This document shows, piece after piece, positions 2 to 33,187 of a stretch of DNA of 33,926 nt. The stretch is from Clostridiales bacterium. Its GTDB lineage: Bacteria > Bacillota > Clostridia > Christensenellales > Pumilibacteraceae. Location: positions 1 through 33,926 of the forward strand of contig JAFLVE010000112.1 in assembly GCA_022511445.1 (NCBI GenBank). The letters are read 5' to 3'. Made by a program: the position numbers and the translations under genes. Each line of letters begins with the position of its first letter. Positions within the stretch are counted from its first letter, which is position 1. Below the pieces are notes generated by a model. It was not told the DNA's origin, did no database searches, and saw only the letters and a list, made by a program, of their open reading frames with translations.

Positions 2-3000
2 ACGTCGAGTAACGACGGAACGTACTATCCCGCAGGCGGCGGCGGTGGTGGCGGCGGCTACTACGGCGGCGGCGGTGCGGCAGGCGGATCTATCCGCGGA
101 AGCTCCAATAACCGTATCGGATACAACGGCAGCGCGGGCTCGTCCGGACAGGGCGGCGCAGGCGGCGCGGGGCAGACGAGCGGCAGAGCATATCACAGCG
201 GCGCAGGCGGCGGTGGCGGCGGCGGAAGCAACTACACCGGCGGCGTAACGAGCGCAGGCGCTACCAACGGCAACCGTGCGGGCAACGGCTATCTTCAAAT
301 TTATGTAGTCCGTGCCAATCAGGAGCCTGTAACTCTTAATAAGACTTATTCCGGCGGCACTCGCGGCACGGGCAAGAGCGTTGTAATAAAGGCTTCCGAA
401 ATTGCAAAGGACCCCGACGGCACGGCGACTGCGGTTTACTTTACCGATAACGTATCGACCAACTACGACACGTGCACGCAGGGCGGCTTTAAGCTTTATC
501 TTAACGCGGCTTGCACGACCCAGGCGACCAACTATATCGATTATACCGTAAACAGCACCTCTCAAATAACGATAACCAATATTAAAAAATATCCTCGAAA
601 CGGCGTAGACGGCTGTACTTCAAACGGACGGCTGACTTTATACTGCAAAGTTAGAGACGCGTACAATACAAGCACAACGCGCGGTATAGGTACTATTTTG
701 TTCTACGTAACCGTTTCGTACACTATGCCTACCGCTAAAACGGCGGTTACGCTTACGACGGGCGGAACGAGTCCGAGTACTATGTACGTCGGCAATTCGG
801 GAAGAACAACGGCTCCCGAATCCGCGTCGGTAAGCAGCATTTACAATCCTAAGGGTACCGGCATTTACACCGCTATGATTACTCAGCCTATCAAGTTGAG
901 TAAGGCGGGGCAGGCCGAGTCCACGGTGGTAATCAATCCCGGCGACCTTTTGAATAACGTCGCCACGACTTACGACATGGCGGCGATTGCACTGCGCGAC
1001 GTTTCAGCTATCGACAAGGTCAACTCTTCACGTATATTTAAGGTTAACGAATACGACAGCAACTCCGGAATAACGGCATACACCGACGCCGGAGTAAAGA
1101 TATCCAATATATTCTCTCAGCTTACGATTGTAGGCGTAAACTCCAAAGAGGAGTATCAAGTTTTACCCGTTACTCTGTACGTTCTCGAAAAGGCTTCGCC
1201 TAAGGGCACCAACTACGGACTGCCCGGGTTTACGGCAATAAACCTCGAGATTGTATTTAAGGTAGATAACACGCGACCTACCGTAAAGAATACCCAGACG
1301 ACAATTCCGGTTATCACTCTTTCCGCTTCCGATGCGTCTCCGGTCAAAAAGTCGCTTAACGATTTCTTCGTAGATATAGACAACTCTACGATGAATACAA
1401 ATACGCACAAAATTACCGGAGTAAAGGTACCTCAATACGAGTGGGTACAGCTCGATAAATACGGCAAGGTAGTTTCCACGGCAATGAATAACGGCACCTC
1501 GTACTATAACGCCGTACCGTTATCCAATTTACCGAGCAACGACGCACTCAACACAGTGCTGACGACGGGCGAGCTCAGAACGGCCGACGGCACGTTTGCT
1601 ACGGGCTTTGAGAGCTGGTTTATTTCGGAAAGTGCGAGTTCCTCTGCGTTCATATCCTATTCTTTTAGCGGAATCGACATAACGTTAAAGGGTCTGCGTG
1701 CGACTTATTCCATGTATAAGCCTGCTCGTACATCGTACACGTCGCTTGTTTCGGGAAGCACGTCCGGCGTAACGGCGAGTAACTGCAGCGGCTCGATTGT
1801 CAACCCCGGACATTTCTATATCCTTATTAATGTCCAGGATAAAAACGATAACGACGACCTCGGTATATGGCTGCCCCTCGGCATAGAAGTCAGCAACAGC
1901 GCGCCTACCAATATTTCGTACGAGCGCGGATCGTCGGTGCTTAGCACTATGCCTACCGCAAGCGGCAACGGTATTTCCGCAAGCGGCGAGCCCGGCGAAA
2001 CCTTCTACTTTACGCCAATGGGTATAAACGTAGACCGCGTTACTTATCCTCTCGGACAGTATAAAGTCGGCAACGAACTCGTCAGCACAAATCTCCGTGC
2101 GCTTTCTACCGACATAGACACCTATGCCGTAAACACAATGCTCGGCAGCAGCACCGGATTCCTTAACGAATTGGTGCGCATTACTTCGATGCCGGCAGAC
2201 GTTATGGCGGGCGTTCAGGGCAACGTTTTAGTCAGTAACAGTTTTCTCGATCGGCAGTATCACCAGTACTTTGACGTCGAGGCGCTTGACATTTATATCC
2301 CGACCGCAATATTCGGCGGCAGGCTCGGTCCCGCCTCCGATTACGGCACCGTACAGGGCGAGCACGTTATTGTAACCGGTCTCAAGGTTACGCTTAACAA
2401 CTGGACGCAGGGCAGATATCTTTACGCGCCCGTCAACATCAAAGACTCGGCTAACGCGACGGCAACGGTGTATATCGCGGTAAACGTAAACAATAGCACA
2501 CCTACCGCAATTAAGACGTCCGGAGATACGACGATGCTTGCCGACAGCGTAGCGACGCTCGATATAGTCAGCAACGGCAAAGTCGTTAAATCGACCTACG
2601 CTTTGGACGATGAAAACATTCCTACTGTTTCGTATCAAATTCCTTACGGCGACAGCGTTATTATCACACCGTACGACGTGCTTAACGACCTTAACATGCG
2701 TCTTTCGGGCATTACGTACCCGGCAGGCGGGTTTACGCTGAACGGTCTTTCCGGCTATATAGGCACAGACGGCGTGTTCTCCGTTAACGGCTCGTCGTCT
2801 GCCAACTCGGTTAAGTTCGAAGGGCTTGCAACCCCCGATAACGTCGGCGTCGACTACTCGTCGTCCGATTATTTGGCGAGTCTTAAAACGACACTTGGCA
2901 AGATTGTCGCAGGACACAGTCTTAGCAGCGTTTCAAATGTTAACTCATTTGCGACACCTTCGGGCGTTACAAGCGTAACTTACGACAGACTGTATTTCGA

Positions 3001-6000
3001 GCGCACGATTGACGCAAGCAATCTCGACGGTTACACCTTCAATCCCAGCGAGTCGGGCGACCAGAAGAACGCGTTTACGATTCCTTCCATTATCAACTCG
3101 TCGTATATCGATCTTCGCTTCGGCAGCAACATTTCTTGGGACGGCGCGACGTACGGAATTGACTTCCTTGTCGTTTCCGGCAGACAGCGTACGCCGAGCG
3201 GCGTTGTTTCCACGTTTACTCTGAACGTCCGCGATAAGACGGGCAGAGGCGCGTCAGGCGCAAGCTCCGGCATAGCTCAGATAAACGTTAATATCGAGGT
3301 TATAAACAGCACGCCTCATCTTAAAGAGCCCAACAAGATTTACGAGCTTATTGCAGGCGACGTAAGCAGAGGTATGCTTTCGCTTGCTTCGAGCGGTGAT
3401 GACGGAATCCTTACCGACACCGAGGATTCGTACATGGCGTTTGTCGCTAACTCCGCGTCGGTTATTACCTTTGTTGACGGAGAGAAAACCTCTACCGATT
3501 CATACGGAAATACATTTATAAACAACTATGTTTTGGTTACAATTAACGCTCAAACGCTTACTATAACTGCGCTTAACTCTACACAGGCGATTCAAAAGCT
3601 GTATATCGAGTTCCGTGCAGTCGACGACTATTCGACTACGGACAGCTCTACGCTACGCATTCAAATTCAAATTTCCAATGCGAAGATGACTGTCAATACG
3701 ACAGAGTCGGGCTTTGCACATGACAGTAACTCCAGCCTTAACATTTGGAGCGTCAACTCGGTTACCGAAACCGATATGACAATGGAGAGATACCTTGTTT
3801 CGAGCGAGGCCGCTGCGCAAGCGCTTAAAGACCAAGGTATTGCAGACGGTCAGATTAAGTATCTTGTAAAAGACGAGGACAGACTGCAAGGCGCTATTCT
3901 TGCTCCCGTCGAAATCCCCGACCCGGCGAACGTTGCGCCGGATCAGGGCATGGCGTATATAAATAAGCCTTCGACTTTCCCCGAAGGGAGGACCGCAAAG
4001 GATTACGTCCCGTACCTTTCGACTACCGAAAGAGGCTTTGACGGCATAACTCCCGTCGGCGTATATCTTAACTGGGTAACAAGAGATACCGTAAGCGATC
4101 CCGAAAGCTTTAATAACCCCGAAGACGACGGTATGAAGGGCAACAAGTTTATCGCAAATCAAGACATTATTTATTTGATCGGTACGGGAGAAGACGCCGC
4201 GTTCCACAGCGCGTCCGAAATCAGAGCGGGCACCGACCCGGTCGACCTTTCCGGCTCGTTCGATTCGCAAGGGCGCTGGAATGTAAAAGACTGGGCTATA
4301 AAAATCCAAACTATAACGATGTTTGACGCCGGTCTGTATTTGCAGATTAACGTAATGCTTCGCGACGATCCCGCGTACGGCGGCGACACGGCGGGCGTAA
4401 AAACAAACTACGATTTTAAGGATTCCGCGTACGCTAACGGAGAACAATCCAACGTAGACGGATATGCCTTCCTTAAGTACCACCTTACCATTAAAGGTAC
4501 GGGTCTTGTAACTTACGATTACTACGACAACTACAACGGTTATTATATCGTATCCGACGAGGCGGATCCTTCCGTCGTTTATCTTCCTACGTACGACCCC
4601 GTCTTCTCAAAGACTTTCCCGACGACTCGCGACAATATTTACTACGTCCCGGGCAAAACCGACGAGGGAATTATAAACGCATACGCCAATCAACCCGGCG
4701 GATCCACGCTTGTTAAAGACCGTACGATGAACCAACAAAACGGTACTTTCGGCGGAATTAACTCGGGCATGCTTTACTCCGACTTCAATCCCGAAAGAAC
4801 GGTTTTCTCCGACGGAGAGGCTCCTTTCAGATACACCAATACTATTTCTGTTTCGGGCGATACGACAAACGGAGCGGTATTTACCTATATTCCTATGAGC
4901 TATATGGGTCTTATGCAGTCTCTTCTCGGACCGACTCAGGACGAGGGAGAGGGTATTTCTCCGTCAAACGTCGGTTTGGTTAACTTTAAGAGATATGACT
5001 ACGTCGCGTACAACATAGATACAGCTTTGGGTTACCACCGCGGTACTTATAGCGAGATACGCGACGCTATAACGATAAGCGACGGCGTAGACAGCTGGAC
5101 GGGTACACGATTAGACAGCAACCCTTATATCCAGTTTGACGCATACGACGCTTATATCCATACGTATCAAATGACCAATCAATCCGAAAAGGATGCCCAA
5201 AGGGATTATGCGATTTATTCGCAGACCAAAAACGAACCTTACTTTAACAAGGCTCTCCATATAAGCACGGTATCCAAGGACGCTTCCAAAAACACGGTAG
5301 TAAAACCTTACGTTAAAAATAGTGACAATCATGTAAATTTTGTAGGCAACGGACACTTGATGTACATTGACGGTCAATACAGCGACACCGGTCTGCAAGA
5401 GAACATGTTCGGTATCGGACTTGCCAAAAAGACGGGCTCCGGCACAAAGCGTGCAAGCGTAGAAAACTTGACTATAACGATTAAGCTTGCGGTCTGCAAA
5501 ACCGATCAGTCCTCCGTCCCCGGCGATACCACTCTGAACGGTTTGACTAAAACGAACTACACCGAAGACGACGTCGATACCTACACCGCGGAGGTTACGT
5601 TCCATATCGATCTCGGCAACGCGCCTATGGACCTCGTTTCCGAAACGGGTAACGAAGCGGTTATCAAAGCGGACAACACAACTGGCTATTACTCCGAAGT
5701 TCGCCTCCAGAACGGCGGAACGGGTGTGACGTTTAAGCTTGACAATAATGTCGATCCAAGCACTTTGGAAGGCGAGAAGCTTATTAAGTTTACCGACGCC
5801 GACACTTCCGACACCGCGCATTTCTATCCCGATTCGCTTAACCGTCTCAATAAGTGGAACAATGCCGCATACAGGCGCACTTTGACGTCGTACACGGCGG
5901 AAACCGCAAGCGCGGGCAGCACCTATAAGCTTAAATACACGGCTCAAAGCGACAACGCGCAAAGGTCGATGTTCAACTACTACGGTGTTGCGTTCGACAG

Positions 6001-9000
6001 AGACAGGGAAACCAATATCGCTAAGCTTGAAGAAAACGATTACAGGTATGCCGCCAACGACGGTATTTACGGTACTAACCGCGCTACATCTCTTGCTACG
6101 GCAACAGGCGACGAGGGTTACAGCCGTTACTTCTCGGCAGCCTTTATGAACAACAACGAGGAGCTTACAATTACTCCTCTTGCAAAGACGCTTATTAACA
6201 GCGACGCGCTTAATGCGGGATATCAAAGCGCCCAGGGTAGTAACGTACGTGAAAAGTACATAAACTACTACGCAGAGCGCGGACTTGTACCCGTATTCGA
6301 AAGTCCCACGGCTAACGTCGTCGTTGACGCTTACTATCCGCTGAAAGTCATGATTTACGACGATTGCGGCGACGGTTGGGATAGGGCGTCTTACATTGCG
6401 CTCGAAATAAGGGTTTACGTAACCGATTCGGTTATTAAGCTCGCATCCGGTCTTAACAACACCAATAAGGACGCTGAGGGTAACGACATTGTCGACGGAA
6501 ACAAGACGATGGAGCTCTCGCTTGCGGTAGGATCGTCGTATGTGCTCAACCTTTCGTCCATTATTACCGGCAACGACATTATGCCCGTTAACAATCAGCG
6601 CAGATGGTGGAAGACGGATTACGACGGACTTAAAAATGCGACCAACATCGACGACAAGTTCGCTTACGAAACGGCAAACTATATAGTATCGCCGTTTGTG
6701 GAATGGAAGTCGACGACTAAGGATGCCGCAAATACGGCGCTCCGTAACGGTAACGGCACGTATACCGACACAACCACTTTGGCAGAAGCGGATCAGCCCG
6801 ATATCACTATCGGAATGGAATACAACACCGGCTCCCTGTCCAATCAATCGATACCTATTACAAACGACATTACCATTCACGTAAACCGTCGTACGATTTA
6901 CAAAGAGGGTAACACAAGCCATACTCAGACAGAATTCGAGTTTAACCTTGTGTTCTACGATAGCGGTCACTATTACGGCGACAGAAATATCTACAACGAG
7001 GGCACGGGAACTCTTACCATTAAGATCAACGTTACCAACAAGAGCCCCGAGCTTCGTACCGGTCTTATACCGACCGAAGTAACGATGCGCGTTGAAGACC
7101 ACTTCCGTCTTATGACCACGCCTTATGACGAGTTTATGAGCGGAACGGAATCCAACTCCGTCGGCTGGTACAACCGCGGTGAAAAGATTGACAGTAGGGA
7201 CCAAAGCTTTAACTTCTCGCACTTTACTACGTCCGTTCTTGCCGATCCCGAGACAAAAGTAAGAAACGCAACCGTTAACGACAGCGCCAAGGCTGATCTC
7301 GGTACCGCGGCAATCGTAAAGGACGATACTCCTTGGACGTTGCGTATTAAGTCGCTTGTTTACAACGAAACGTATTTCCAAATCCGTAGATATGACAACC
7401 TTGCATACGAGAGAGATCCCGACGAGACGGGTGCGCTACACATTGTTATAACCGCGCTGAAAACAACGGCTTCACGTATGCCTGTTTCCGTAGTGGTTAC
7501 GGACGGAGAGGGCTCCGAAGTGACATTTACCGTTTACATCTCGGTAGAAAGCTCCAAGCCTCAAGCAATATCCAGGGCGGACACTTCGTCTCACTCACTT
7601 AACGACGGTCTTGAGTTTATCAACGATTCCAACGGAAACGAGATTCACGGCGAATACTCGCTGTACATGACTGTTTACGACGGTACCGCTCGCTCGCAGA
7701 ATATTACGCTCAACGACAACTCGAGCACGGTTGTTAAGGCGTTTAACGAGCTTACGATAAATGCCGCAAACGTTGCTTTCGATCCCGATTACAACGATAA
7801 CCTTTCCATCGGTCTCTATACGCCGACCGCAGAGGAAGGTACCTCGGTATTCATGTTTAACAATGCCGACGTCGATATGTCGGTTGACGGATCGTACCTG
7901 GTGCCCGGCAAGTTCCTTATTACTCCGCTTGACGGCAATTTGAGCAAGTTCTCCATTAGGTGCTTAAGCTTCAACTCGTCCAAAAATTACGAGACGCTGT
8001 CGTTTAGGGTTAGAGACGTCGGCAACAACATAGCCGAAAACGCCGTTACCATCACGATAAGGATTTACACCCTGTTTGCGTCGATGAGCAACGCCCACGC
8101 TATTTCCACATCGACCTCTCAAATCACGCGTCTTACGGTAGACAATATCTACGTTAAGTCGTACGACGAGTTTATGGGAATCGGCATCGAGGAGGGCGAC
8201 GAAGGGTTTGCGCATATCGGCGAACAGAGCAGCTATCAGTTCCTCAAATACGGCGGAATGCCCGAGTCCATCGACCAGAATTCTTCCAAGAGCGGCGCGT
8301 ATATAATCGACCCCGACGTCAGCATGAGCAACTTTAACCTCAACTACGACGTTAAGATTTATGCGTTTATGAATGGTAACGGAACGGACGGCTTTACAAG
8401 CTCCGATCCCTCTACGCTTACCGACTTGTTCAACGTCAATGTAAACAACGGCACGTTCGCGCTTAAAAACCGCTCCGACTCCGAATTCGATATTCAGTAC
8501 CTTATCGGCGGCAGAAGGTCGACGGGCGCGTCCTACGACTCGCTTATCAACAAGCAGCTGTTAATGTACTTAAGAGAATACTTTGTGTTCTCAATCGGCG
8601 AAGACGGGGTTTCGATCACCTTTAGACCTATAACCTCCAACTTCGACAAGAAGATTCTCTTGTACGTCGACATCCAAAAAACGGTTGAAGCAAGCAGAAC
8701 TATTGCACCTAAAAACGCACAGCTTTCCGCAGGCTCGCTGTTCTACGTCGATATAAACGACTCCAAACCGATCGCCAGTACCGAGGAATCAATAAAGAAG
8801 TTCGAAGGTCGCCGCGGCGATTCCGCCACATTCACTATCTTCGATAACGACGATCCGTTCGGCTCGCTGTTCACCGATTCCGACGTCGGCGACAAGGTTA
8901 TCGTAAAAGGGCGCTCGAGACTGACCGATCACACGAAGGTCGGTGTAAACGACTTCGATTACGAAGCTGCTCTTGCGGGAACGACGCTCGATTGGGACGC

Positions 9001-11260
9001 CGGCAGCAACAAGGATCGCGCTATCGATATATCTGTAGACAACGAGGCACATACCTTGACGGTTACCATTAAGCGCCGAATCGACGATAAGGACCAAAAC
9101 GGAGCTTATAAGCCGAAGGTAGAATTGCCTGTCGTTATTACGGGTGTTGATAATGCCGAAAAGACCGCTCAGGTTATTCTGCTTATTACGATTGTCAACT
9201 CCGAAATGTCGATTGACTTCGACGGCTTGCAGATGTCCCAAAACAACATTACCGAAAGCATGAATAGCGACATGACGGGTTACCGCTTGCTTAAGGGCGA
9301 AAACGATTACTCCTTCACACTCGAAGTGATGGTTTCGGTCGATTCCCCTTCGGTCGAAGTTAGGATGCTCGAGATGTTCAACGACCCCGACTACCGCAAC
9401 CCGGTATACGACGACGTAAACAATCCCGCCGATACCGATTCCTTCCGTCTAGTTGCACCGGATGAACGCGGTACGTACATTACATCGACTACGCATATCT
9501 TTACCGCGGCGCAGGAGGAAGATGAACGACTCGATCTTGCAACGGTAACGCCTCGCTTTATCGGCAACGACCCGTATAAGTTTACCGGCATCGTGGTGTC
9601 CGCCAACTCGTACATGCGCGGATACTCCGGCACGGCAACGATGAGAATTGTCGACAGGAGCGGAGATCCCACAAACACGGGAGAGGGTGTAACCATTACG
9701 CTTAAGGTTATTATCGTTAACTCCGCGCCGACCCTTAAGGCAGGCATGCAGCGGGCAGAATACGATGTAATCGGATCGCAAAACGGCACGGTTGCGCCTA
9801 TTATTATCAACATTGCGGACTTTGTAACCGACGTCAACCCGACCGACGTCCCGTCCCAGGCTGGAAAGACCGATACATACGTACGTATTACGTCATTCTC
9901 GCCGGATATGCCCGAGACGATGTTTGCAACGCCGGACGCAGCGGACGACGGCGGTGACGGTGTCCTCTCCGTCCAGTTGAACACCGAGGATACTTTCAAC
10001 CAAAGCTGTATCGTTACCCCGAGAAAGGGCGTGTTCGGAACGCAGACGATTCATATTACAGTTTCGGACGGAACGGCAAACGACGTCGAAACGCGTACAA
10101 CAACATTTGCCGTACGTGTATCCGTTGTTTACAACTTCGACGAAATTACGAAGCTAAATACGATAAATGTTATTCGCGGAATTTATAAGACGGTTACTGT
10201 TGCGGATCTTGTAGACGAAATCGAGAACACCGCCACCGGCAAGAATGCTCGCCGCTACAATTCCGGCATAGCCACTTATGCGGAGGGAGACGAGGAAGAC
10301 CGCAATACGTTTAACCCCGGCGCGGAGTATATTCTTACAAGGCTGACCGTTCCCAACACATATGTAGACTATGTGAAGATCGATCAGGACGAGGACGGTT
10401 GGCGCTTCCGTCCGATGAGAGTTACGACAAACGGCAACGTCTCGCTCAACGCAGAGTTCAAGCTTAAAACTCAAGTCGACGATCCCGAAGCAAAGACGTA
10501 CAGCGCTTCGTTCGAGGTCAGCATTGCAGACAATCCCAAGCCCGTGCTTATCGACGCGTTTGCCAACGGCTACACATTCTATACGTCGGGCAACGGCTAC
10601 ATTCTTACCGAGGGCACGGTTAACCTGAGACCCGAGCACATGTTTATCGATAAGGCGCCGGGCGACACGCTTAAATTCCATCATGCGTCGACGCTTTCAC
10701 CGTCGCTTGCGACCGCCGAAGTTATTGCGGACGACACGCTTCGCATCCACTTTAACTACAAGGGCGAGACCGAGATTACGGTCGGCGTTATGGACGCTAC
10801 GGAAGAGGTTGTTTCCTTCACGTTTAAGATTATCAACATCGATTTGGAGGAACCCAATCTGTGGGCAACCATCATGATAAGCTTCGAGTCCAACCAGATG
10901 ATTTGGATAATCGCGCTCGGTGCGGTAGGACTGCTTATTATAATCCTCATAATCGTTCTTATAGCGGTTAAACGCCGTAAGCGCAAAATGGAAGAGATGG
11001 AAGCCATACTCATGTCCGAGCTCGAGCTCGAGGAGCAGATGATGCGCCTACAAGCCGGGTCTATGGGAATGATGGGCGACGCGTACGGATACTTGCCACC
11101 TACAATGGGCGGAGGTCCCGTCGATCCCGGGCTTATGCTCGGTAGCGGCGGTACGCAGCAGGTTAATCCTCAGGGTACGTTAAACCTTAACCCCGGTCAG
11201 CAACCCGGAGCGCCTACTCAAGACTACTTCAACGGTGGGCAAAACGATCTCGACTTTTAA
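2..11260 (+). CDS. Giant surface protein, 5'-truncated: Gly-rich domain, tandem cadherin/Ig-like repeats, C-terminal TM
   Basis: Frame 2 is open from base 2 to the TAA at 11260 (3752 residues), so the start and any signal peptide lie left of the window; the TTG at 698 is internal. Residues 1-97 are extremely Gly-rich with Tyr/Asn/Ser and close with NGYLQIYV, which resembles the ALK/LTK-type glycine-rich domain. Then follows a Ser/Thr/Asn/Asp-rich tandem array. Repeat ends share a beta-strand followed by N-[ST]-x-P, for example VNNSTPT (about nt 2490), VINSTPH (3303), VTNKSPE (7038) and VNSAPT (9720), spaced roughly 100-270 residues. This is typical of cadherin-like or putative Ig-like extracellular repeats. 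A stretch around nt 3700-5600 is Tyr-rich with weaker repeat signatures. Residues 3633-3656 form a 24-aa hydrophobic helix followed by KRRKRK and a 96-residue Met/Glu then Gly/Pro/Gln-rich tail. There is no LPXTG motif. Predicted role is an envelope-anchored adhesin or cell-surface scaffold; the exact function is unknown. Confidence 0.85.
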   Translation, partial: TSSNDGTYYPAGGGGGGGGYYGGGGAAGGSIRGSSNNRIGYNGSAGSSGQGGAGGAGQTSGRAYHSGAGGGGGGGSNYTGGVTSAGATNGNRAGNGYLQIYVVRANQEPVTLNKTYSGGTRGTGKSVVIKASEIAKDPDGTATAVYFTDNVSTNYDTCTQGGFKLYLNAACTTQATNYIDYTVNSTSQITITNIKKYPRNGVDGCTSNGRLTLYCKVRDAYNTSTTRGIGTILFYVTVSYTMPTAKTAVTLTTGGTSPSTMYVGNSGRTTAPESASVSSIYNPKGTGIYTAMITQPIKLSKAGQAESTVVINPGDLLNNVATTYDMAAIALRDVSAIDKVNSSRIFKVNEYDSNSGITAYTDAGVKISNIFSQLTIVGVNSKEEYQVLPVTLYVLEKASPKGTNYGLPGFTAINLEIVFKVDNTRPTVKNTQTTIPVITLSASDASPVKKSLNDFFVDIDNSTMNTNTHKITGVKVPQYEWVQLDKYGKVVSTAMNNGTSYYNAVPLSNLPSNDALNTVLTTGELRTADGTFATGFESWFISESASSSAFISYSFSGIDITLKGLRATYSMYKPARTSYTSLVSGSTSGVTASNCSGSIVNPGHFYILINVQDKNDNDDLGIWLPLGIEVSNSAPTNISYERGSSVLSTMPTASGNGISASGEPGETFYFTPMGINVDRVTYPLGQYKVGNELVSTNLRALSTDIDTYAVNTMLGSSTGFLNELVRITSMPADVMAGVQGNVLVSNSFLDRQYHQYFDVEALDIYIPTAIFGGRLGPASDYGTVQGEHVIVTGLKVTLNNWTQGRYLYAPVNIKDSANATATVYIAVNVNNSTPTAIKTSGDTTMLADSVATLDIVSNGKVVKSTYALDDENIPTVSYQIPYGDSVIITPYDVLNDLNMRLSGITYPAGGFTLNGLSGYIGTDGVFSVNGSSSANSVKFEGLATPDNVGVDYSSSDYLASLKTTLGKIVAGHSLSSVSNVNSFATPSGVTSVTYDRLYFERTIDASNLDGYTFNPSESGDQKNAFTIPSIINSSYIDLRFGSNISWDGATYGIDFLVVSGRQRTPSGVVSTFTLNVRDKTGRGASGASSGIAQINVNIEVINSTPHLKEPNKIYELIAGDVSRGMLSLASSGDDGILTDTEDSYMAFVANSASVITFVDGEKTSTDSYGNTFINNYVLVTINAQTLTITALNSTQAIQKLYIEFRAVDDYSTTDSSTLRIQIQISNAKMTVNTTESGFAHDSNSSLNIWSVNSVTETDMTMERYLVSSEAAAQALKDQGIADGQIKYLVKDEDRLQGAILAPVEIPDPANVAPDQGMAYINKPSTFPEGRTAKDYVPYLSTTERGFDGITPVGVYLNWVTRDTVSDPESFNNPEDDGMKGNKFIANQDIIYLIGTGEDAAFHSASEIRAGTDPVDLSGSFDSQGRWNVKDWAIKIQTITMFDAGLYLQINVMLRDDPAYGGDTAGVKTNYDFKDSAYANGEQSNVDGYAFLKYHLTIKGTGLVTYDYYDNYNGYYIVSDEADPSVVYLPTYDPVFSKTFPTTRDNIYYVPGKTDEGIINAYANQPGGSTLVKDRTMNQQNGTFGGINSGMLYSDFNPERTVFSDGEAPFRYTNTISVSGDTTNGAVFTYIPMSYMGLMQSLLGPTQDEGEGISPSNVGLVNFKRYDYVAYNIDTALGYHRGTYSEIRDAITISDGVDSWTGTRLDSNPYIQFDAYDAYIHTYQMTNQSEKDAQRDYAIYSQTKNEPYFNKALHISTVSKDASKNTVVKPYVKNSDNHVNFVGNGHLMYIDGQYSDTGLQENMFGIGLAKKTGSGTKRASVENLTITIKLAVCKTDQSSVPGDTTLNGLTKTNYTEDDVDTYTAEVTFHIDLGNAPMDLVSETGNEAVIKADNTTGYYSEVRLQNGGTGVTFKLDNNVDPSTLEGEKLIKFTDADTSDTAHFYPDSLNRLNKWNNAAYRRTLTSYTAETASAGSTYKLKYTAQSDNAQRSMFNYYGVAFDRDRETNIAKLEENDYRYAANDGIYGTNRATSLATATGDEGYSRYFSAAFMNNNEELTITPLAKTLINSDALNAGYQSAQGSNVREKYINYYAERGLVPVFESPTANVVVDAYYPLKVMIYDDCGDGWDRASYIALEIRVYVTDSVIKLASGLNNTNKDAEGNDIVDGNKTMELSLAVGSSYVLNLSSIITGNDIMPVNNQRRWWKTDYDGLKNATNIDDKFAYETANYIVSPFVEWKSTTKDAANTALRNGNGTYTDTTTLAEADQPDITIGMEYNTGSLSNQSIPITNDITIHVNRRTIYKEGNTSHTQTEFEFNLVFYDSGHYYGDRNIYNEGTGTLTIKINVTNKSPELRTGLIPTEVTMRVEDHFRLMTTPYDEFMSGTESNSVGWYNRGEKIDSRDQSFNFSHFTTSVLADPETKVRNATVNDSAKADLGTAAIVKDDTPWTLRIKSLVYNETYFQIRRYDNLAYERDPDETGALHIVITALKTTASRMPVSVVVTDGEGSEVTFTVYISVESSKPQAISRADTSSHSLNDGLEFINDSNGNEIHGEYSLYMTVYDGTARSQNITLNDNSSTVVKAFNELTINAANVAFDPDYNDNLSIGLYTPTAEEGTSVFMFNNADVDMSVDGSYLVPGKFLITPLDGNLSKFSIRCLSFNSSKNYETLSFRVRDVGNNIAENAVTITIRIYTLFASMSNAHAISTSTSQITRLTVDNIYVKSYDEFMGIGIEEGDEGFAHIGEQSSYQFLKYGGMPESIDQNSSKSGAYIIDPDVSMSNFNLNYDVKIYAFMNGNGTDGFTSSDPSTLTDLFNVNVNNGTFALKNRSDSEFDIQYLIGGRRSTGASYDSLINKQLLMYLREYFVFSIGEDGVSITFRPITSNFDKKILLYVDIQKTVEASRTIAPKNAQLSAGSLFYVDINDSKPIASTEESIKKFEGRRGDSATFTIFDNDDPFGSLFTDSDVGDKVIVKGRSRLTDHTKVGVNDFDYEAALAGTTLDWDAGSNKDRAIDISVDNEAHTLTVTIKRRIDDKDQNGAYKPKVELPVVITGVDNAEKTAQVILLITIVNSEMSIDFDGLQMSQNNITESMNSDMTGYRLLKGENDYSFTLEVMVSVDSPSVEVRMLEMFNDPDYRNPVYDDVNNPADTDSFRLVAPDERGTYITSTTHIFTAAQEEDERLDLATVTPRFIGNDPYKFTGIVVSANSYMRGYSGTATMRIVDRSGDPTNTGEGVTITLKVIIVNSAPTLKAGMQRAEYDVIGSQNGTVAPIIINIADFVTDVNPTDVPSQAGKTDTYVRITSFSPDMPETMFATPDAADDGGDGVLSVQLNTEDTFNQSCIVTPRKGVFGTQTIHITVSDGTANDVETRTTTFAVRVSVVYNFDEITKLNTINVIRGIYKTVTVADLVDEIENTATGKNARRYNSGIATYAEGDEEDRNTFNPGAEYILTRLTVPNTYVDYVKIDQDEDGWRFRPMRVTTNGNVSLNAEFKLKTQVDDPEAKTYSASFEVSIADNPKPVLIDAFANGYTFYTSGNGYILTEGTVNLRPEHMFIDKAPGDTLKFHHASTLSPSLATAEVIADDTLRIHFNYKGETEITVGVMDATEEVVSFTFKIINIDLEEPNLWATIMISFESNQMIWIIALGAVGLLIIILIIVLIAVKRRKRKMEEMEAILMSELELEEQMMRLQAGSMGMMGDAYGYLPPTMGGGPVDPGLMLGSGGTQQVNPQGTLNLNPGQQPGAPTQDYFNGGQNDLDF
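35..300 (+). repeat. Low-complexity glycine-codon repeat region (GGC/GGT runs)
   Basis: Runs of ggc/ggt codons at about 35-80, 145-175 and 200-230 encode poly-Gly tracts of up to eight residues inside the giant surface protein. The tracts alternate with Tyr, Ser, Asn and Ala codons. This is coding low complexity rather than an intergenic repeat, and it may be variable in length between strains. Confidence 0.75.
10898..10969 (+). other. C-terminal transmembrane helix of the giant surface protein
   Basis: These bases encode 24 almost uninterrupted hydrophobic residues, starting MIWIIALG and ending IVLIAV. They are followed at once by a basic stop-transfer cluster (KRRKRK). The large repeat region should therefore be outside and the last 96 residues inside the cell. 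A sortase motif is absent, so anchoring is by this helix. Confidence 0.85.
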
Positions 11261-25588: not shown

Positions 25589-26842
25589 ATGATAAACATT
25601 CCCAAAGGCACAAAAGACATGCTTCCCGCCGACAGCCACAAGTGGCAGGCGGTGGAGGACGCGGCGCGTAAAATAGCGGCGCTGTATAACGTTCAAAAAA
25701 TTCGTACGCCCGTATTTGAAAGCGCCGAGCTTTTTTTGCGCTCGGTCGGCGAAGGCTCGGATATAGTCAATAAGGAGATGTACGTATTCGAGGATAAGGG
25801 CGGTAGGCGTATGGCGCTCCGTCCCGAGGGTACGGCTGGCGTTATGCGCTCGTTTATCGAGAACAATCTCGGCGAGAGTCTCCCGCTTAAAACTTATTAT
25901 ATCGAATCCATTTACCGATACGAACAGCCGCAGTCGGGAAGGTACAGAGAGCATCACCAGTTCGGCACCGAGTTTTTCGGTAGCGACAAGCCGGAGTTTG
26001 ACGCCGAGGTAATTTCGCTCGCTCACGATTTTTTGCACGAAGTGGGCTTTACCGACGATACGCTGAAGCTCCAAATTAACTCGATAGGCTGCCCGCAGTG
26101 CAGAGCCGAGTACAACAAGGCGCTGAGGGCGTTTCTTAACAGTCACATAGACGAGCTTTGCGGCGATTGTAAGCGCAGGGCGGAGGTTAATCCGCTTCGC
26201 GCGCTCGACTGCAAGGTTGACTCGTGCAAAAAGATATACGTAAACGCGCCGAGGATAAGCGATTACCTTTGCGACGATTGCCGCAATCACATGAAGGAAG
26301 TTAAAAAGCTTCTCGATCTTAACGGTATTAAGTATACCGAAAACGACAAGCTGGTTAGGGGGCTCGACTACTACACTCGCACCGTTTTCGAGTTTGTGGG
26401 ACCCAAATATACTGTTCTCGGCGGCGGCAGGTACGACGGGCTTTGCGAGGAGCTCGGCGGCAAGCACATGCCGTGCGTAGGCTTCGGTTGCGGAATAGAG
26501 CGGTTAATAGAGGCGGCGGAAGGCATAGGCGTGCAGTTTAATAGACCTATTCCCGAGGTTTTCGTTGCGGCGCAGTGCGACGGGACGAGAGACGAATGCG
26601 CAAAAATCGTCCGCGATCTCCGTAAAGCGGGGATTTCCGCGGAAACCGATCTTATGGGCAAAAGCTTAAAGGCGCAGTTTAAGTACGCCGACCGCCGCGG
26701 TTTTAGATACGTTATTACAATAGGCGAAAGCGAGCTCGCTTCCCAAACTATAAATATTAAACAAATGACAGACGGCACCGTTATTTCGATAGACAAGTCG
26801 AAACTTTCGGAGCAAGTCGGGAGGCTTTTATGGCAAAAATAG
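25589..26842 (+). CDS. hisS: Histidyl-tRNA synthetase
   Basis: The 417-aa class II synthetase charges tRNA-His. Its N-terminus carries IPKGTKDMLPADSHKW. Motif 2 is IYRYEQPQSGRYREHHQFG, the first His-specific block is LRPEGTAGVMRSF and the second is LVRGLDYYTRTVFEF. NPLRALDCKV and GFGCGIERL (motif 3) follow, then the C-terminal anticodon-binding domain from about residue 325. It starts 6 nt after hslU with no clear ribosome binding site, so translation is likely coupled. No T-box leader is present. It overlaps aspS by 13 nt. Confidence 0.96.
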   Translation: MINIPKGTKDMLPADSHKWQAVEDAARKIAALYNVQKIRTPVFESAELFLRSVGEGSDIVNKEMYVFEDKGGRRMALRPEGTAGVMRSFIENNLGESLPLKTYYIESIYRYEQPQSGRYREHHQFGTEFFGSDKPEFDAEVISLAHDFLHEVGFTDDTLKLQINSIGCPQCRAEYNKALRAFLNSHIDELCGDCKRRAEVNPLRALDCKVDSCKKIYVNAPRISDYLCDDCRNHMKEVKKLLDLNGIKYTENDKLVRGLDYYTRTVFEFVGPKYTVLGGGRYDGLCEELGGKHMPCVGFGCGIERLIEAAEGIGVQFNRPIPEVFVAAQCDGTRDECAKIVRDLRKAGISAETDLMGKSLKAQFKYADRRGFRYVITIGESELASQTINIKQMTDGTVISIDKSKLSEQVGRLLWQK

Positions 26843-28623
26843 GCAACAGGACCTCATACTGCACAGACCTTACCGAAAAGGATATCGGCAAAGAGGTCGT
26901 CGTTAAGGGTTGGACGGCAAAGCGCCGCGACCTCGGCGGAGTTATATTTGTGGATCTCCGCGACCGCACGGGCATACTTCAGGTCGTTTTCGAAGCCGCA
27001 GAAGTAGACAACTTCCCGTTGGCGGAAAAAATTCGAAGCGAGTACGTTCTTGCCGTGCGCGGTAAGCTTCGCGCGCGCGACGAGGACATGATAAACCCCA
27101 AAATAAAGACGGGCGCAATCGAGGTGCTTGCCTACGAGCTCGAAATTCTTTCCGACGCCGATACGCCGCCGTTCGCTCTCGAGGACGCGGAATCGGTCAA
27201 CGAAATGACCCGCCTTAAATACCGCTATCTCGATCTTCGCACCGACAGAATGACGGAGATTATGCGGCTCAGAAGCGAAATGCTGTACGTTACGCGCGAC
27301 TATCTCCATAAAAACGGATTTTGGGAGATAGAAACGCCGTACCTCGGCAAGTCCACGCCGGAGGGCGCAAGGGACTATCTTGTTCCTTCCCGCGTACACA
27401 ACGGATCGTTCTACGCGCTCCCGCAGTCGCCGCAGCTTTACAAACAGTTGCTTATGGTGGGCGGCGCGGATAAGTATTATCAGATTGCGCGTTGCTTTAG
27501 AGACGAGGACCTACGCGCCAACCGTCAGCCCGAGTTTACGCAGATAGACCTCGAAATGTCTTTTGTTACCCAAAAGCAGGTAATGGACTTGGCGTACGGC
27601 TTGGTGCGCGAAATTTTCAAAAAGTGCGCCGGCGTAAAGCTCCCCGCAAAAATACGCGAAATGCCGTACGACGAGGCTATGGCGAGGTTCGGCTCCGATA
27701 AGCCCGACACTAGATTCGGACTCGAGCTTGTCGACGTTTCCGATATTGCCGCGCATTGCGGTTTTCAGGTTTTCGAGCGCGCCGTTGCAATGAGCGGCGG
27801 AAGCGTTCGCATGATAAACGCGAAAGGCTTCGTAAAAGAAAACGAGCTTATTTTGTCCCGTCGAGATATCGACGCGCTCGGCGAATTTGTTAAGACGTAT
27901 AAAGCTAAGGGTCTTGCCTGGATACAGGTTAGAAACGGCATGGAGCTTAACTCGTCCATAACAAAGTTTATGTCGAAGGAGACTGTTGACGCTCTTCTTA
28001 AACGCGCAAAGGCGGAGCCCGGAGACTTGCTCCTCTTTGTCGCCGACAAAAACGAAATCGTCTTTAAGACGCTCGGCGCGCTTAGGTTGCACCTTGCGGA
28101 CATTGCCGGGCTTATCGATAAATCGAAGTTCGACGTTTTGTGGGTTGTAGACTTCCCGATGTTCGAGTGGTCGGAGGAGGAAAAACGCCACGTCGCCGTT
28201 CACCATCCGTTTACCATGCCGCACGAGGAGGACCTCGGCATTTTGGAAAGCGACCCCGGTGCGGTGCGGGCGGCGGCGTACGACCTTGTTATAAACGGCG
28301 AGGAGTCGGGCGGCGGCAGTCTTCGTATTCACGACAGGGCGCTCCAAAAGCGTATATTCAACATTCTCGGCTTTACGGACGAGCAGATAGAAGAGCGCTT
28401 CGGATTTTTCGTCAATGCGTTTAAGTACGGCGCGCCTCCTCACGGCGGGCTTGCGTTCGGCTTCGACAGGCTCGTAATGATGCTCGCTCACACCGAAAAC
28501 ATAAAGGACGTTATCGCGTTCCCCAAAATTCAAAACGCGTCCGACGTTATGACCCAGGCGCCTACGCCCGTCGACAAAAAGCAGACCGAGGAACTCGGAC
28601 TTAAGGTTGTCGAAAAGATTTAA
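26830..28623 (+). CDS. aspS: Aspartyl-tRNA synthetase
   Basis: The 597-aa bacterial-type AspRS has an N-terminal OB-fold anticodon domain, a class II core and an inserted GAD domain (about 285-415). Motif 2 is [16 protein letters not shown] and motif 3 is [15 protein letters not shown]. Asp34-Leu35-Gly36-Gly37 in the anticodon domain has Leu where tRNA-Asn-misacylating bacterial enzymes usually have His. The second site reads RARDEDMIN rather than the RPEG.. form. By analogy with E. coli and Pseudomonas enzymes this suggests a discriminating AspRS. GGGAGG (26819-26824) fixes the ATG inside the hisS end. The hisS-aspS pairing is common in Firmicutes. Confidence 0.96.
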
Positions 28624-28637
28624 CCGAGCTTTTTTCG

Positions 28638-30305
28638 ATGTTAGAGCAGTGCGTTGTAAAAAAAGTCAAAAGGTCGGTTGCATATATCGAGCTTGTCCGC
28701 TCGGATAAATGCGACGGCTGCAATATTTGTTCCTTTAACAAAAAAAAGGCGATTACCGTGCCCGCGCTTTACGATAAAAGCGTTAAAGCGGGCGACACGG
28801 TGACTGTCGAAATGCCCACCGAGTCGGTCGGGGCAGCGTCGCTTCTTATCTATCTTTTCCCAATTGTCCTTATGGCGGTCGGGGCGGCGATAGGGCTTGT
28901 CGGCTCGGTATGGCTTCAGGTATCCCTTGCGGGCGCGGGGCTTGTCCTCGGGCTTGCGGCTTCCTTTATTACCGACAAAATTTATCGGAGAAAAAGCGGT
29001 GTACTGCCGAAGATTATTTCCGTTACCGACAAAACCGATGAGAAACAAAATACAAAAGGAGAAAACATTATGGATTTCGACGTAATTGCAAAAACCGATC
29101 CCGAGGTTGCGGAGAGCATGAAAAGAGAGCTTACCCGCCAGCGTTCCAAAATCGAGCTTATCGCAAGCGAAAACTTTGTGTCGCCCGCGGTGCTCGCCGC
29201 GGCGGGGTCGCATCTCACCAACAAGTATGCGGAAGGCTATCCCGCCAAAAGATACTACGGCGGCTGCGAGTACGTCGACGAGATTGAATCGCTCGCAATA
29301 GAGCGCGCCAAGGCGCTGTTCGGCGCGGAGCATGCAAACGTTCAGCCGCATTGCGGCGCAAACGCCAATCACGCCGCGTTTTACGCAACCCTCGAGCCGG
29401 GCGACACGTTTATGGGCATGAATCTTGCTCACGGCGGTCATCTTACGCACGGCTCCAAGGTCAACTATTCGGGTAGATTCTATAACGTAGTTCCGTACGG
29501 TGTAAATGAGAAAACCGAAACAATCGACTACGACGAGGTGGAGCGTATCGCCAAGGAATGCAAGCCTAAGCTTATTCTTGCCGGCGCGTCCGCATATCCC
29601 CGCGCAATCGACTTTAAAAAGTTCAGAGAGATTGCGGACAAGGTAGGCGCGGTGCTTATGGTAGACATGGCGCACATAGCGGGTCTTGTCGCGGCGGGTC
29701 TGCACGAGAACCCCGTAAAGTACGCCGATATTGTCACTACCACCACCCATAAAACTCTAAGGGGCCCGCGCGGCGGCATGATTCTTTGCCGCGAGAGCTT
29801 TGCCAAGGCGATAGATAAGGCTATTTTCCCGGGCACGCAGGGCGGTCCGCTCGAGCATATCATAGCCGCAAAGGCAATCGCGCTTAAAGAGGCGGGCACG
29901 GAGGAATTTAAAAAATATCAAAAGCAAATCGTGCTTAACGCAAAGGCTCTGTCCAAGGCGCTTGACGCTCGCGGCGTAAAGCTCGTTTCGGGCGGCACTG
30001 ACAATCATCTTATGCTTCTTAAGCTCGAGGGAATCACCGGCAAGGAGCTCGAAATCCTTCTCGACGAGTGCAATATCACCGTCAATAAAAACGCCATTCC
30101 TTTCGATCCGCTGCCGCCGTCAAAAACGTCGGGCATCCGAATCGGCACGCCTGCGGTTACAACTCGCGGAATGAAGGAAGAGGATATGAAGGTAATTGCC
30201 GACTGCATTGTCGATTGCATCCAAAAGGGCGAGACCGCAAAGACGGACGTGCTAAAAAAGGTTAAGGCTCTTACCGATAAATACCCGCTTTATCCTCAAG
30301 TTTAA
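28638..30305 (+). CDS. RseC-like redox membrane domain in frame with serine hydroxymethyltransferase (possible fusion)
   Basis: The ORF opens 14 nt after aspS with ATG at 28638 and stays open through glyA to 30305 (555 codons). Residues 1-144 resemble the SoxR-reducing/RseC (MucC) family. There is a small beta domain with Cys5 and the cluster Cys25-x2-Cys28-x2-Cys31, then two membrane helices (about 67-90 and 92-113) and a basic stop-transfer RRK. RseC proteins are linked to Rnf/SoxR electron-transfer control. Residues 121-144 are a hydrophilic linker that runs into the GlyA start without a stop codon. Since a strong ribosome binding site lies inside that linker, two products are likely: GlyA alone, and a membrane-tethered RseC-GlyA chain. 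The alternative is a lost stop codon from a sequencing or assembly indel. The upstream start has only a weak ribosome binding site. Confidence 0.7.
29054..29069 (+). promoter_or_regulatory. Internal ribosome binding site that sets the glyA start
   Basis: AAAAGGAG at 29054-29061 with an 8-nt spacer to ATG 29070. It lies inside the longer open frame, which implies independent initiation of GlyA. Confidence 0.85.
29070..30305 (+). CDS. glyA: Serine hydroxymethyltransferase (internal start)
   Basis: From the ATG at 29070 the product is 411 aa, the standard length for bacterial GlyA. AAAAGGAG (29054-29061) lies eight bases upstream, far better than the site of the longer frame. The enzyme converts serine and tetrahydrofolate to glycine and methylene-tetrahydrofolate using PLP. 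The PLP lysine is Lys228 in [14 protein letters not shown]. Other motifs are [28 protein letters not shown] and [14 protein letters not shown]. It ends the run that starts at hslV and supplies the folate used by TrmFO. The coding region is continuous with the RseC-like domain upstream. Confidence 0.95.
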
Positions 30306-32330: not shown

Positions 32331-32793
32331 GGCTTTTGTGGAAGAAATAAAAAAAGGCATCAGACTTTTGGGCGTCGACTTCGGGCTTAAAAGGATAGGC
32401 GTCAGCGTGTGCGACAGCGAATGGATACTCGCGTCGCCGCTTCCCGTGATATACACCAAGTCCATGCGCTCTTCCATAGACGCCGTCGCGGTTACGGCAA
32501 AAAATCAGAGCGTCGGCGGAATAGTGGTAGGGCTTCCGCTCAACCTTGACGGAAGCGAATCCGTTCAGTCGGGGCGAGTGCGCGCCTTTTCCAAAAACCT
32601 CGAAAGGGTGACGGGAATAAAAACGGTTCTTTTCGACGAGAGGCTGACCACCGTAGAGGCGAACGAGCTGTTACTGCAAGCGGGCGTAACAAAGTCCGCC
32701 GACCGCGCCAAACTTATAGACAGTATGTCCGCAAAAGTTATTTTGCAGAGCTATATTGACAACAATAAAAATTCGGAGAAGAATCATGGCTGA
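32329..32793 (+). CDS. ruvX: Putative pre-16S rRNA nuclease / Holliday junction resolvase RuvX (YqgF)
   Basis: The 154-aa RNase H-fold protein matches YqgF/RuvX. The first strand LLGVDFGLKRIGVSVCD carries the catalytic Asp17. GGIVVGLPLNLDGSES is the second motif, DERLTTVEA the third, and IDSMSAKVILQSYID the C-terminal block with the last acidic residue. It acts in 16S rRNA 5' maturation in E. coli and has been proposed as a Holliday resolvase. The start is uncertain: ATG 32329 has no ribosome binding site and overlaps a -10 box. GTG 32338 in the same frame could be a leaderless start (151 aa). It overlaps the next gene by 8 nt, the same order as Bacillus yrrK-yrzB. Confidence 0.92.
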   Translation: MAFVEEIKKGIRLLGVDFGLKRIGVSVCDSEWILASPLPVIYTKSMRSSIDAVAVTAKNQSVGGIVVGLPLNLDGSESVQSGRVRAFSKNLERVTGIKTVLFDERLTTVEANELLLQAGVTKSADRAKLIDSMSAKVILQSYIDNNKNSEKNHG

Positions 32794-33187
32794 AAACAAG
32801 GATCAGGAAGTCGAGCTTATCGACGAGGAAGAGATTATTACGCTTTACGACGACGAGAACAATCCCGTGGATTTTTACGAGGTCGCTTGCGTCGAATATA
32901 AAGGCGAATTTTATGCGCTGATGCAGCCCGTAGAGCCCATGGAGGGCTTGGGCGAGGATGAGGCGCTCATCTTTAAGGTGACGGAGCAGGACGAGGAAAA
33001 CGACGCGTTCGAGCCCGTTACCGACGAGAGCGTGCTCGAGGCGGTATTCAACGAATATCTTAACGCCGTTGCCGACGCGGAAGAATGCGGTTGCGGTTGC
33101 GAGCACGATCACTGCGACTGTGAGCACGACCATTGCGACTGCGAAGACGATCATTGCGACTGCGGTTGCGAGCATAAGGATAAATAA
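32786..33187 (+). CDS. DUF1292 family protein with Cys/His-rich metal-binding-like tail
   Basis: The ATG at 32786 follows GGAGAAG and gives 133 aa; the earlier in-frame ATG at 32756 lies deep in ruvX. Residues 1-95 are an acidic DUF1292 (YrzB-like) domain with IITLYDDENNPVDFYEVA and YKGEFYALMQPVEP. Residues 101-133 are an added tail with ten Cys and six His, built of three copies of E-[HE]-D-H-C-D-C-like heptads between CGCGC and CGC ends. This resembles metallothionein or metal-chaperone tails. Zinc, nickel or copper binding is inferred, not shown. DUF1292 proteins have no firmly known function. The pairing with ruvX is conserved in Firmicutes. Confidence 0.88.
   Translation: MAENKDQEVELIDEEEIITLYDDENNPVDFYEVACVEYKGEFYALMQPVEPMEGLGEDEALIFKVTEQDEENDAFEPVTDESVLEAVFNEYLNAVADAEECGCGCEHDHCDCEHDHCDCEDDHCDCGCEHKDK
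33101..33163 (+). repeat. Three 21-bp tandem repeats encoding Cys/His heptads
   Basis: Units at 33101-33121, 33122-33142 and 33143-33163 differ by only a few, mostly synonymous, bases and each encodes a seven-residue unit ending HCDC. The count could vary by slippage between strains. Confidence 0.85.

What the first reader, a model, noticed from the sequence alone, without database searches (positions are those of the whole stretch)
28638..30305. RseC-like membrane redox domain fused in frame to serine hydroxymethyltransferase
No stop codon separates a 144-residue Cys-rich, two-helix RseC-like domain from GlyA, while a strong internal ribosome binding site precedes the standard GlyA start. 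The gene could make both soluble GlyA and a membrane-tethered form. I know of no described RseC-GlyA fusion; one-carbon metabolism linked to a membrane redox module would be new.
Basis: partly seen in the sequence, partly recalled or inferred. Interest (0 to 1): 0.75.

Follow-up and report, generated by a model that had tools for sequence, protein, structure and literature searches.

The report
In-frame RseC–serine hydroxymethyltransferase gene fusion
In three related bacteria known here from draft genomes, two neighbouring genes, one for a probable helper protein of a membrane electron pump and one for a central metabolic enzyme, have no stop codon between them and read as one long gene, probably a tolerated accident of tight gene packing rather than a new machine, although a working membrane-tethered enzyme is not excluded.

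Summary
In detail: 28638-30305 (+) is one open frame of 555 residues, RseC_MucC at 7-126 and serine hydroxymethyltransferase (GlyA) at 151-524. It is not an assembly error: another species (G018; RseC 81%, GlyA 96% identical) has the same stop-less frame in a separate assembly, and G012 a 550-residue one. These are 3 of the 9 rseC-bearing genomes among 20 in the genus, and they group together. In the other six the rseC stop lies within 20 nt of the glyA ATG.

The glyA Shine-Dalgarno and ATG are kept in all three fused genes, and between G000 and G018 changed less than the linker beside them (1 of 18 versus 16 of 33 sites), so free GlyA is probably still made. RseC tracks the Rnf complex (8 of 9 rseC-bearing genus members, 0 of 11 others), not glyA. 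Best reading: RseC serves Rnf; stop loss in an abutting gene pair gave it a passenger SHMT tail beside a normal GlyA. A selected membrane-tethered SHMT is possible but unproven.

The parts
28638..30305 (+). rseC-glyA fused open reading frame, 555 aa
   Evidence: comparable frames in G018 and G012
28638..29015 (+). RseC_MucC domain (residues 1-126): Cys-rich N-terminal part with C25, C28, C31 and a long hydrophobic region taken as two transmembrane helices
29016..29069 (+). linker (residues 127-144); in four relatives RseC stops in this region, in two just past the glyA ATG
29055..29063 (+). internal Shine-Dalgarno region of glyA (AAAGGAGAA, read as KGE in the fused frame)
   Evidence: duplex -8.7 kcal/mol; little changed against the linker
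29070..30305 (+). glyA with its own ATG, 411 aa serine hydroxymethyltransferase
26830..28623 (+). aspS, 597 aa, directly upstream; its stop lies 14 nt before the rseC ATG

Best explanation
This is a real stop-less junction between rseC and glyA in a tightly packed operon. The mRNA probably gives two products: (1) a low-level RseC-GlyA protein started at the weak rseC start, whose RseC part sits in the membrane with both ends in the cytoplasm and serves the Rnf complex, with SHMT as a passenger on its C-terminus; (2) the main product, ordinary soluble GlyA, started at the strong internal site. The fusion arose by small indels at a junction where the rseC stop lay inside or beside the glyA ribosome-binding region. 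It is tolerated because the C-terminus of RseC is cytoplasmic and GlyA is still made separately. Shown: the frame, its occurrence in three species, separate genes in relatives, the kept internal start, and co-occurrence of rseC with Rnf. Inferred: two products, their amounts, the topology in this organism, the indel route, tolerance rather than benefit.
For: One frame in three genomes. In the six unfused relatives the rseC stop ends 1-3 nt before the glyA ATG (four genomes) or the genes overlap by 11 and 20 nt (two); G001 is in the same frame with a single TGA between. glyA Shine-Dalgarno strong in all nine (-6.6 to -9.1) and rseC start weak in the fused three (-0.6 to -2.2) (the unfused rseC starts range from -0.9 to -8.4). 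Shine-Dalgarno and spacer sites changed 1 of 18 versus 16 of 33 in the adjoining linker (one species pair, stretches chosen after seeing the alignment). dN/dS about 0.8 in linker codons 128-139 against about 0.13 for RseC and 0.05 for GlyA. rseC tracks Rnf: genus 8 of 9 versus 0 of 11, family 29 of 35 versus 12 of 39. rnfCDGEAB in G000. E. coli RseC has both ends in the cytoplasm, shown with reporters fused to its C-terminal side (PMC11729352, abstract and passages).
Against: The three fused genomes group together (99.3/99 in the concatenated tree). If the fusion arose once, chance retention of the open frame over that divergence is 0.22, 0.03 or 0.007 at indel/substitution ratios of 0, 0.03 and 0.1, which would argue for selection. 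Over the whole linker (codons 125-144) dN/dS is 0.21, not near 1. In E. coli, removing the C-terminal domain of RseC greatly reduced complementation (PMC11729352, abstract), so a changed C-terminus might matter. No expression or protein data were available here for these organisms.
Confidence: 0.7

Rival explanations
1. The fusion is selected: SHMT is tethered to the membrane next to the Rnf complex, coupling one-carbon or serine-glycine flux to ferredoxin/NAD redox, while soluble GlyA is made in parallel.
For: The three fused genomes group together and no unfused rseC-bearing genome falls among them; single-origin retention by chance is 0.22 or less, falling to 0.007 with indels; linker length is identical in G000 and G018 and dN/dS over codons 125-144 is 0.21; rseC and glyA are neighbours in 15 of 15 loci of the genome-contig scan.
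Against: Different junction registers in G012 and G000/G018 fit two separate origins; chance retention within the G000/G018 pair alone is 0.50, 0.26 or 0.08, or 0.52-0.59 counting substitutions only; dN/dS near 0.8 in linker codons 128-139; rseC follows Rnf, not glyA; no such frame in the other 32 rseC-bearing genomes of the family listing.
Confidence: 0.15
2. The long protein is made but cut in the linker, so that the cell ends with ordinary RseC and ordinary GlyA.
For: The middle of the linker is unconserved and, by eye, hydrophilic; both domains are under purifying selection.
Against: No cleavage motif was sought; no data.
Confidence: 0.12
3. Sequencing or assembly error removed the stop.
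For: These are draft assemblies; G012 is listed with 7% contamination and its register could come from one indel.
Against: G000 and G018 are different species in separate assemblies with many substitutions yet the same stop-less junction.
Confidence: 0.03

Closest known systems
RseC of Clostridium ljungdahlii (putative regulator or partner of Rnf; PMC9124969, abstract and passages seen) and RseC of E. coli (SoxR reducer; PMC11729352, abstract and passages seen)
   Same: Pfam RseC_MucC, three conserved Cys, a hydrophobic region fitting two helices, genome also has an rnf cluster
   Different: Cys spacing C-x2-C-x2-C instead of E. coli's C-x2-C-x5-C; the gene lies behind aspS and before glyA, not at rnf; carries SHMT at its C-terminus
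Bacterial serine hydroxymethyltransferase GlyA (closest solved: 3pgy, E 2.8e-166)
   Same: Full-length catalytic domain, NCBIfam PRK00011 over its cut-off, single copy
   Different: Readable as a C-terminal extension of RseC in three species; own start retained
Translationally coupled, abutting or overlapping gene pairs (PMC10666635, abstract and outline seen)
   Same: Six relatives have rseC and glyA abutting or overlapping by up to 20 nt
   Different: In the fused three the stop is gone, so termination-reinitiation at this junction cannot occur; only one long chain plus internal initiation (inference)

Membership tests
RseC_MucC (PF04246) | Profile match over curated cut-off | tested here: met
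   65.3 bits in the whole protein against 24.4; 69.2 in the genome search. No NCBIfam match for this part
RseC_MucC (PF04246) | Conserved Cys cluster before the first transmembrane helix | tested here: met
   C25, C28, C31 invariant in 9 of 9 genus members; spacing differs from E. coli
RseC_MucC (PF04246) | Two transmembrane helices, both ends cytoplasmic | tested here: inconclusive
   Overlapping hydrophobic windows at 61-99 and 85-113, with the GlyA part peaking at 1.78 on the same scale; topology only by analogy to E. coli; no solved relative found
Rnf-linked RseC | Occurs with an Rnf complex | tested here: met
   8 of 9 rseC-bearing against 0 of 11 rseC-less genus members; rnf cluster in G000
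Rnf-linked RseC | Acts on Rnf expression or function | not testable with these tools
   Known from C. ljungdahlii (PMC9124969, abstract and passages)
Serine hydroxymethyltransferase | Profile match over cut-off, full length | tested here: met
   PF00464 554 bits, positions 2-399 of 399; PRK00011 635 against 335
Serine hydroxymethyltransferase | Enzyme activity, tetrahydrofolate and PLP binding | not testable with these tools
   The motif [14 protein letters not shown] is present in the sequence; that its Lys binds PLP is recalled
Selected multi-domain fusion protein | Join conserved by selection beyond chance | tested here: inconclusive
   Fused genomes group together, but the linker middle drifts and there are two registers

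The most novel reading that the evidence does not exclude
A selected RseC-SHMT fusion that places a second pool of serine hydroxymethyltransferase at the membrane beside Rnf, with soluble GlyA made from the same message by an internal start: one gene giving a tethered and a free form of a one-carbon enzyme.
Probability: 0.15. Interest if true: 0.75.

Novelty: new variant of a known kind. Interest (0 to 1): 0.35.

Why it matters
It is a natural case of stop loss in an abutting gene pair, with fused and unfused states side by side in one genus and the internal start apparently still kept by selection. It shows how annotation of one long gene can hide two products. If the tethered form proves functional, it would tie one-carbon metabolism to the Rnf redox pump. 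The close co-occurrence of rseC with Rnf in this genus, at a locus away from rnf, also fits RseC as an Rnf partner.

Tried and rejected
Assembly error: rejected for G000/G018. A further fusion in genus g14 (G032, 559-residue frame, E 5.9e-4): rejected; the frame is a 538-residue membrane protein with only a sub-cut-off RseC match (13.3 bits against 24.4). A dependence of glyA on rseC: rejected; of 11 rseC-less genus members six keep full-length glyA, two have fragments at contig ends, three have none or only a weak hit. A broad search for the fusion: in the full family listing 3 of 35 rseC matches (one of the 35 under the cut-off) lie in frames of 500 residues or more. The order and phylum listings were cut short; the rows shown have frames of at most 275 and 376, but one search leaves out even G000 and G018, so fusions among unlisted matches are not excluded. 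Printed precedent: 'RseC' with 'Rnf' with 'serine hydroxymethyltransferase' gave 0 papers; 'rseC' with 'glyA' gave 4, listing only seen; 'serine hydroxymethyltransferase' with 'membrane-anchored', 'fusion', 'bacteria' gave 6, listing only seen; by title none is about this fusion. Most subscription journals, and preprints, are not in that library. A structure model could not be made.

Full report
WHAT IS THERE. The window carries one open frame at 28638-30305 (+), 555 residues. Pfam finds RseC_MucC at 7-126 (65.3 bits, cut-off 24.4) and SHMT at 151-524 (554.1 bits). The internal ATG at 29070 starts a normal 411-residue GlyA. It is preceded by AAAAGGAGAAAACATT, a strong Shine-Dalgarno (duplex -8.7 kcal/mol); the rseC start has almost none (-2.2) and lies 14 nt behind the aspS stop. 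The genome, 1.86 Mb in 118 contigs and 92% complete, shows one rseC and one glyA.

RECURRENCE. The genus holds 20 genomes in this collection. RseC is found in 9 of 20, in 9 of 9 with glyA directly behind. aspS lies directly before rseC in G000, G018, G012 and G001, about 660 nt before it in G003, G017 and G014, and not near it in G016 and G002. The frame is fused in 3 of 9: the window (555 aa), G018 (555 aa; RseC 81%, GlyA 96% identical) and G012 (550 aa). In the full family listing 3 of 35 rseC matches (74 genomes searched) lie in frames of 500 residues or more, the same three. The 15 rseC loci of the one genome-contig scan, whose pattern came from this genus, also have glyA directly behind (15 of 15). 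This is not universal: of the 30 loci L002-L031, 7 have no glyA match in the stretch fetched, and in five order-level ones glyA starts 357-437 nt away.

HOW THE JOIN AROSE. In the six unfused genus members the stop ends 1, 1, 2 and 3 nt before the glyA ATG, or the genes overlap by 11 and 20 nt. Five of the six read the Shine-Dalgarno in the register GGA-GAA/GAG, and four of these stop directly after it (for example KGE-stop). In G000/G018 that register is kept (AAA GGA GAA AAY ATT ATG): the spacer is longer than in four of the six, the stop is gone, and the ATG is in frame. In G012 the register is shifted (AAG GAG AAT GAT ATG), and a TGA in the old register is still there, out of frame. This fits two separate small-indel events; a single event needs later compensating indels. 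Against that, the three fused genomes group together: 99.3/99 in the concatenated tree (nine rseC-bearing genomes and two outgroups, AspS for six of the nine), 95.9/92 for GlyA and 96.7/89 for AspS alone, but only 74.9/22 for RseC alone; 92/83 for GlyA with six rseC-less members added. That fits a single origin. I cannot decide between these.

SELECTION. Between G000 and G018 dN and dS are 0.09 and 0.72 for RseC, 0.03 and 0.71 for GlyA, 0.31 and 1.44 for all linker codons 125-144, and 0.64 and 0.79 for codons 128-139 alone. Both domains are thus kept, and the middle of the linker drifts; the whole linker, which includes the Shine-Dalgarno, does not look neutral. Codons 139-144, which hold the Shine-Dalgarno and spacer, changed at 1 of 18 sites against 16 of 33 in codons 128-138 (Fisher p 0.0018; one species pair, stretches chosen after seeing the alignment). 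The internal start therefore seems constrained, which is the best evidence that free GlyA is still made. Random placement of the observed 19 substitutions leaves the G000/G018 linker stop-free in 0.52-0.59 of trials. A neutral simulation gives 0.50, 0.26 or 0.08 for that pair to stay fused, and 0.22, 0.03 or 0.007 for all three if there was one origin, at indel/substitution ratios of 0, 0.03 and 0.1; branch lengths and indel model are my assumptions. These numbers do not call for selection if there were two origins, and they hint at it if there was one.

WHAT RSEC DOES HERE. Rnf-Nqr (PF02508) is in 8 of 9 rseC-bearing genus members and in 0 of 11 others (Fisher 7e-5); the exception, G003, is 84% complete. 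In the family the counts are 29 both, 6 rseC only (one of them a sub-cut-off rseC match), 12 Rnf only (9 of them in one genus), 27 neither, of 74 (Fisher 7e-6). Neither test is corrected for kinship. G000 has an rnfCDGEAB run on another contig without rseC in it (RnfC by Pfam, E and A by PF02508, the other names by order and recall). In C. ljungdahlii deletion of rseC abolishes autotrophy and represses the rnf cluster during autotrophy (PMC9124969, abstract and passages). In E. coli RseC has both ends in the cytoplasm, interacts with RsxB and RsxD in two-hybrid tests, and its three conserved Cys can form an Fe-S cluster; loss of its C-terminal domain greatly reduced complementation (PMC11729352, abstract and passages). 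A C-terminal SHMT would thus lie in the cytoplasm, where it could fold (inference). glyA persists in rseC-less genomes (six of 11 with full length), so the enzyme does not need RseC.

MECHANISM. Most likely, rseC is started poorly and gives a little RseC-GlyA, while most GlyA comes from the internal start (inference from the start sites). In relatives with a stop beside the ATG, rseC and glyA would be coupled by termination-reinitiation, which needs such short distances (PMC10666635, abstract). In the fused three that coupling is gone and replaced by one chain plus internal initiation (inference).

VERDICT. The claim of a new link between one-carbon metabolism and a membrane redox module is not supported, but it is not excluded. 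Missing: any expression data, strains of the same species, and a structure model (tool off).

Noticed in passing
window 698-11260 (+): A 3520-residue frame (listed from a TTG start) ending, by eye, in a hydrophobic segment and a basic stretch, with no Pfam match at E 0.001; looks like a giant cell-surface protein.
   Followed up: partly
window 26830-28623 and genus search: The 597-residue aspartyl-tRNA synthetase near rseC is in 7 of 20 genus members; ten others show as best match only a 33-34% identical stretch in a 436-460-residue frame, so the genus may use two AspRS types.
   Followed up: no
L018, L019, L024, L025: In these four order-level relatives a thioredoxin-like frame (WCGPC) lies between rseC and glyA.
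   Followed up: no
G004, G005, G013: Three rseC-less genus members at 94-96% completeness show no glyA or only a very weak hit.
   Followed up: no
window 32756-33187 (+): DUF1292 protein with a Cys/His/Asp-rich tail (repeats like EHDHCDC), perhaps metal-binding.
   Followed up: no
window 11625-31971: At 9 of 12 same-strand junctions examined the genes abut or overlap (gaps of -20 to 14 nt; TTG starts uncertain), so stop loss can easily join genes here.
   Followed up: partly
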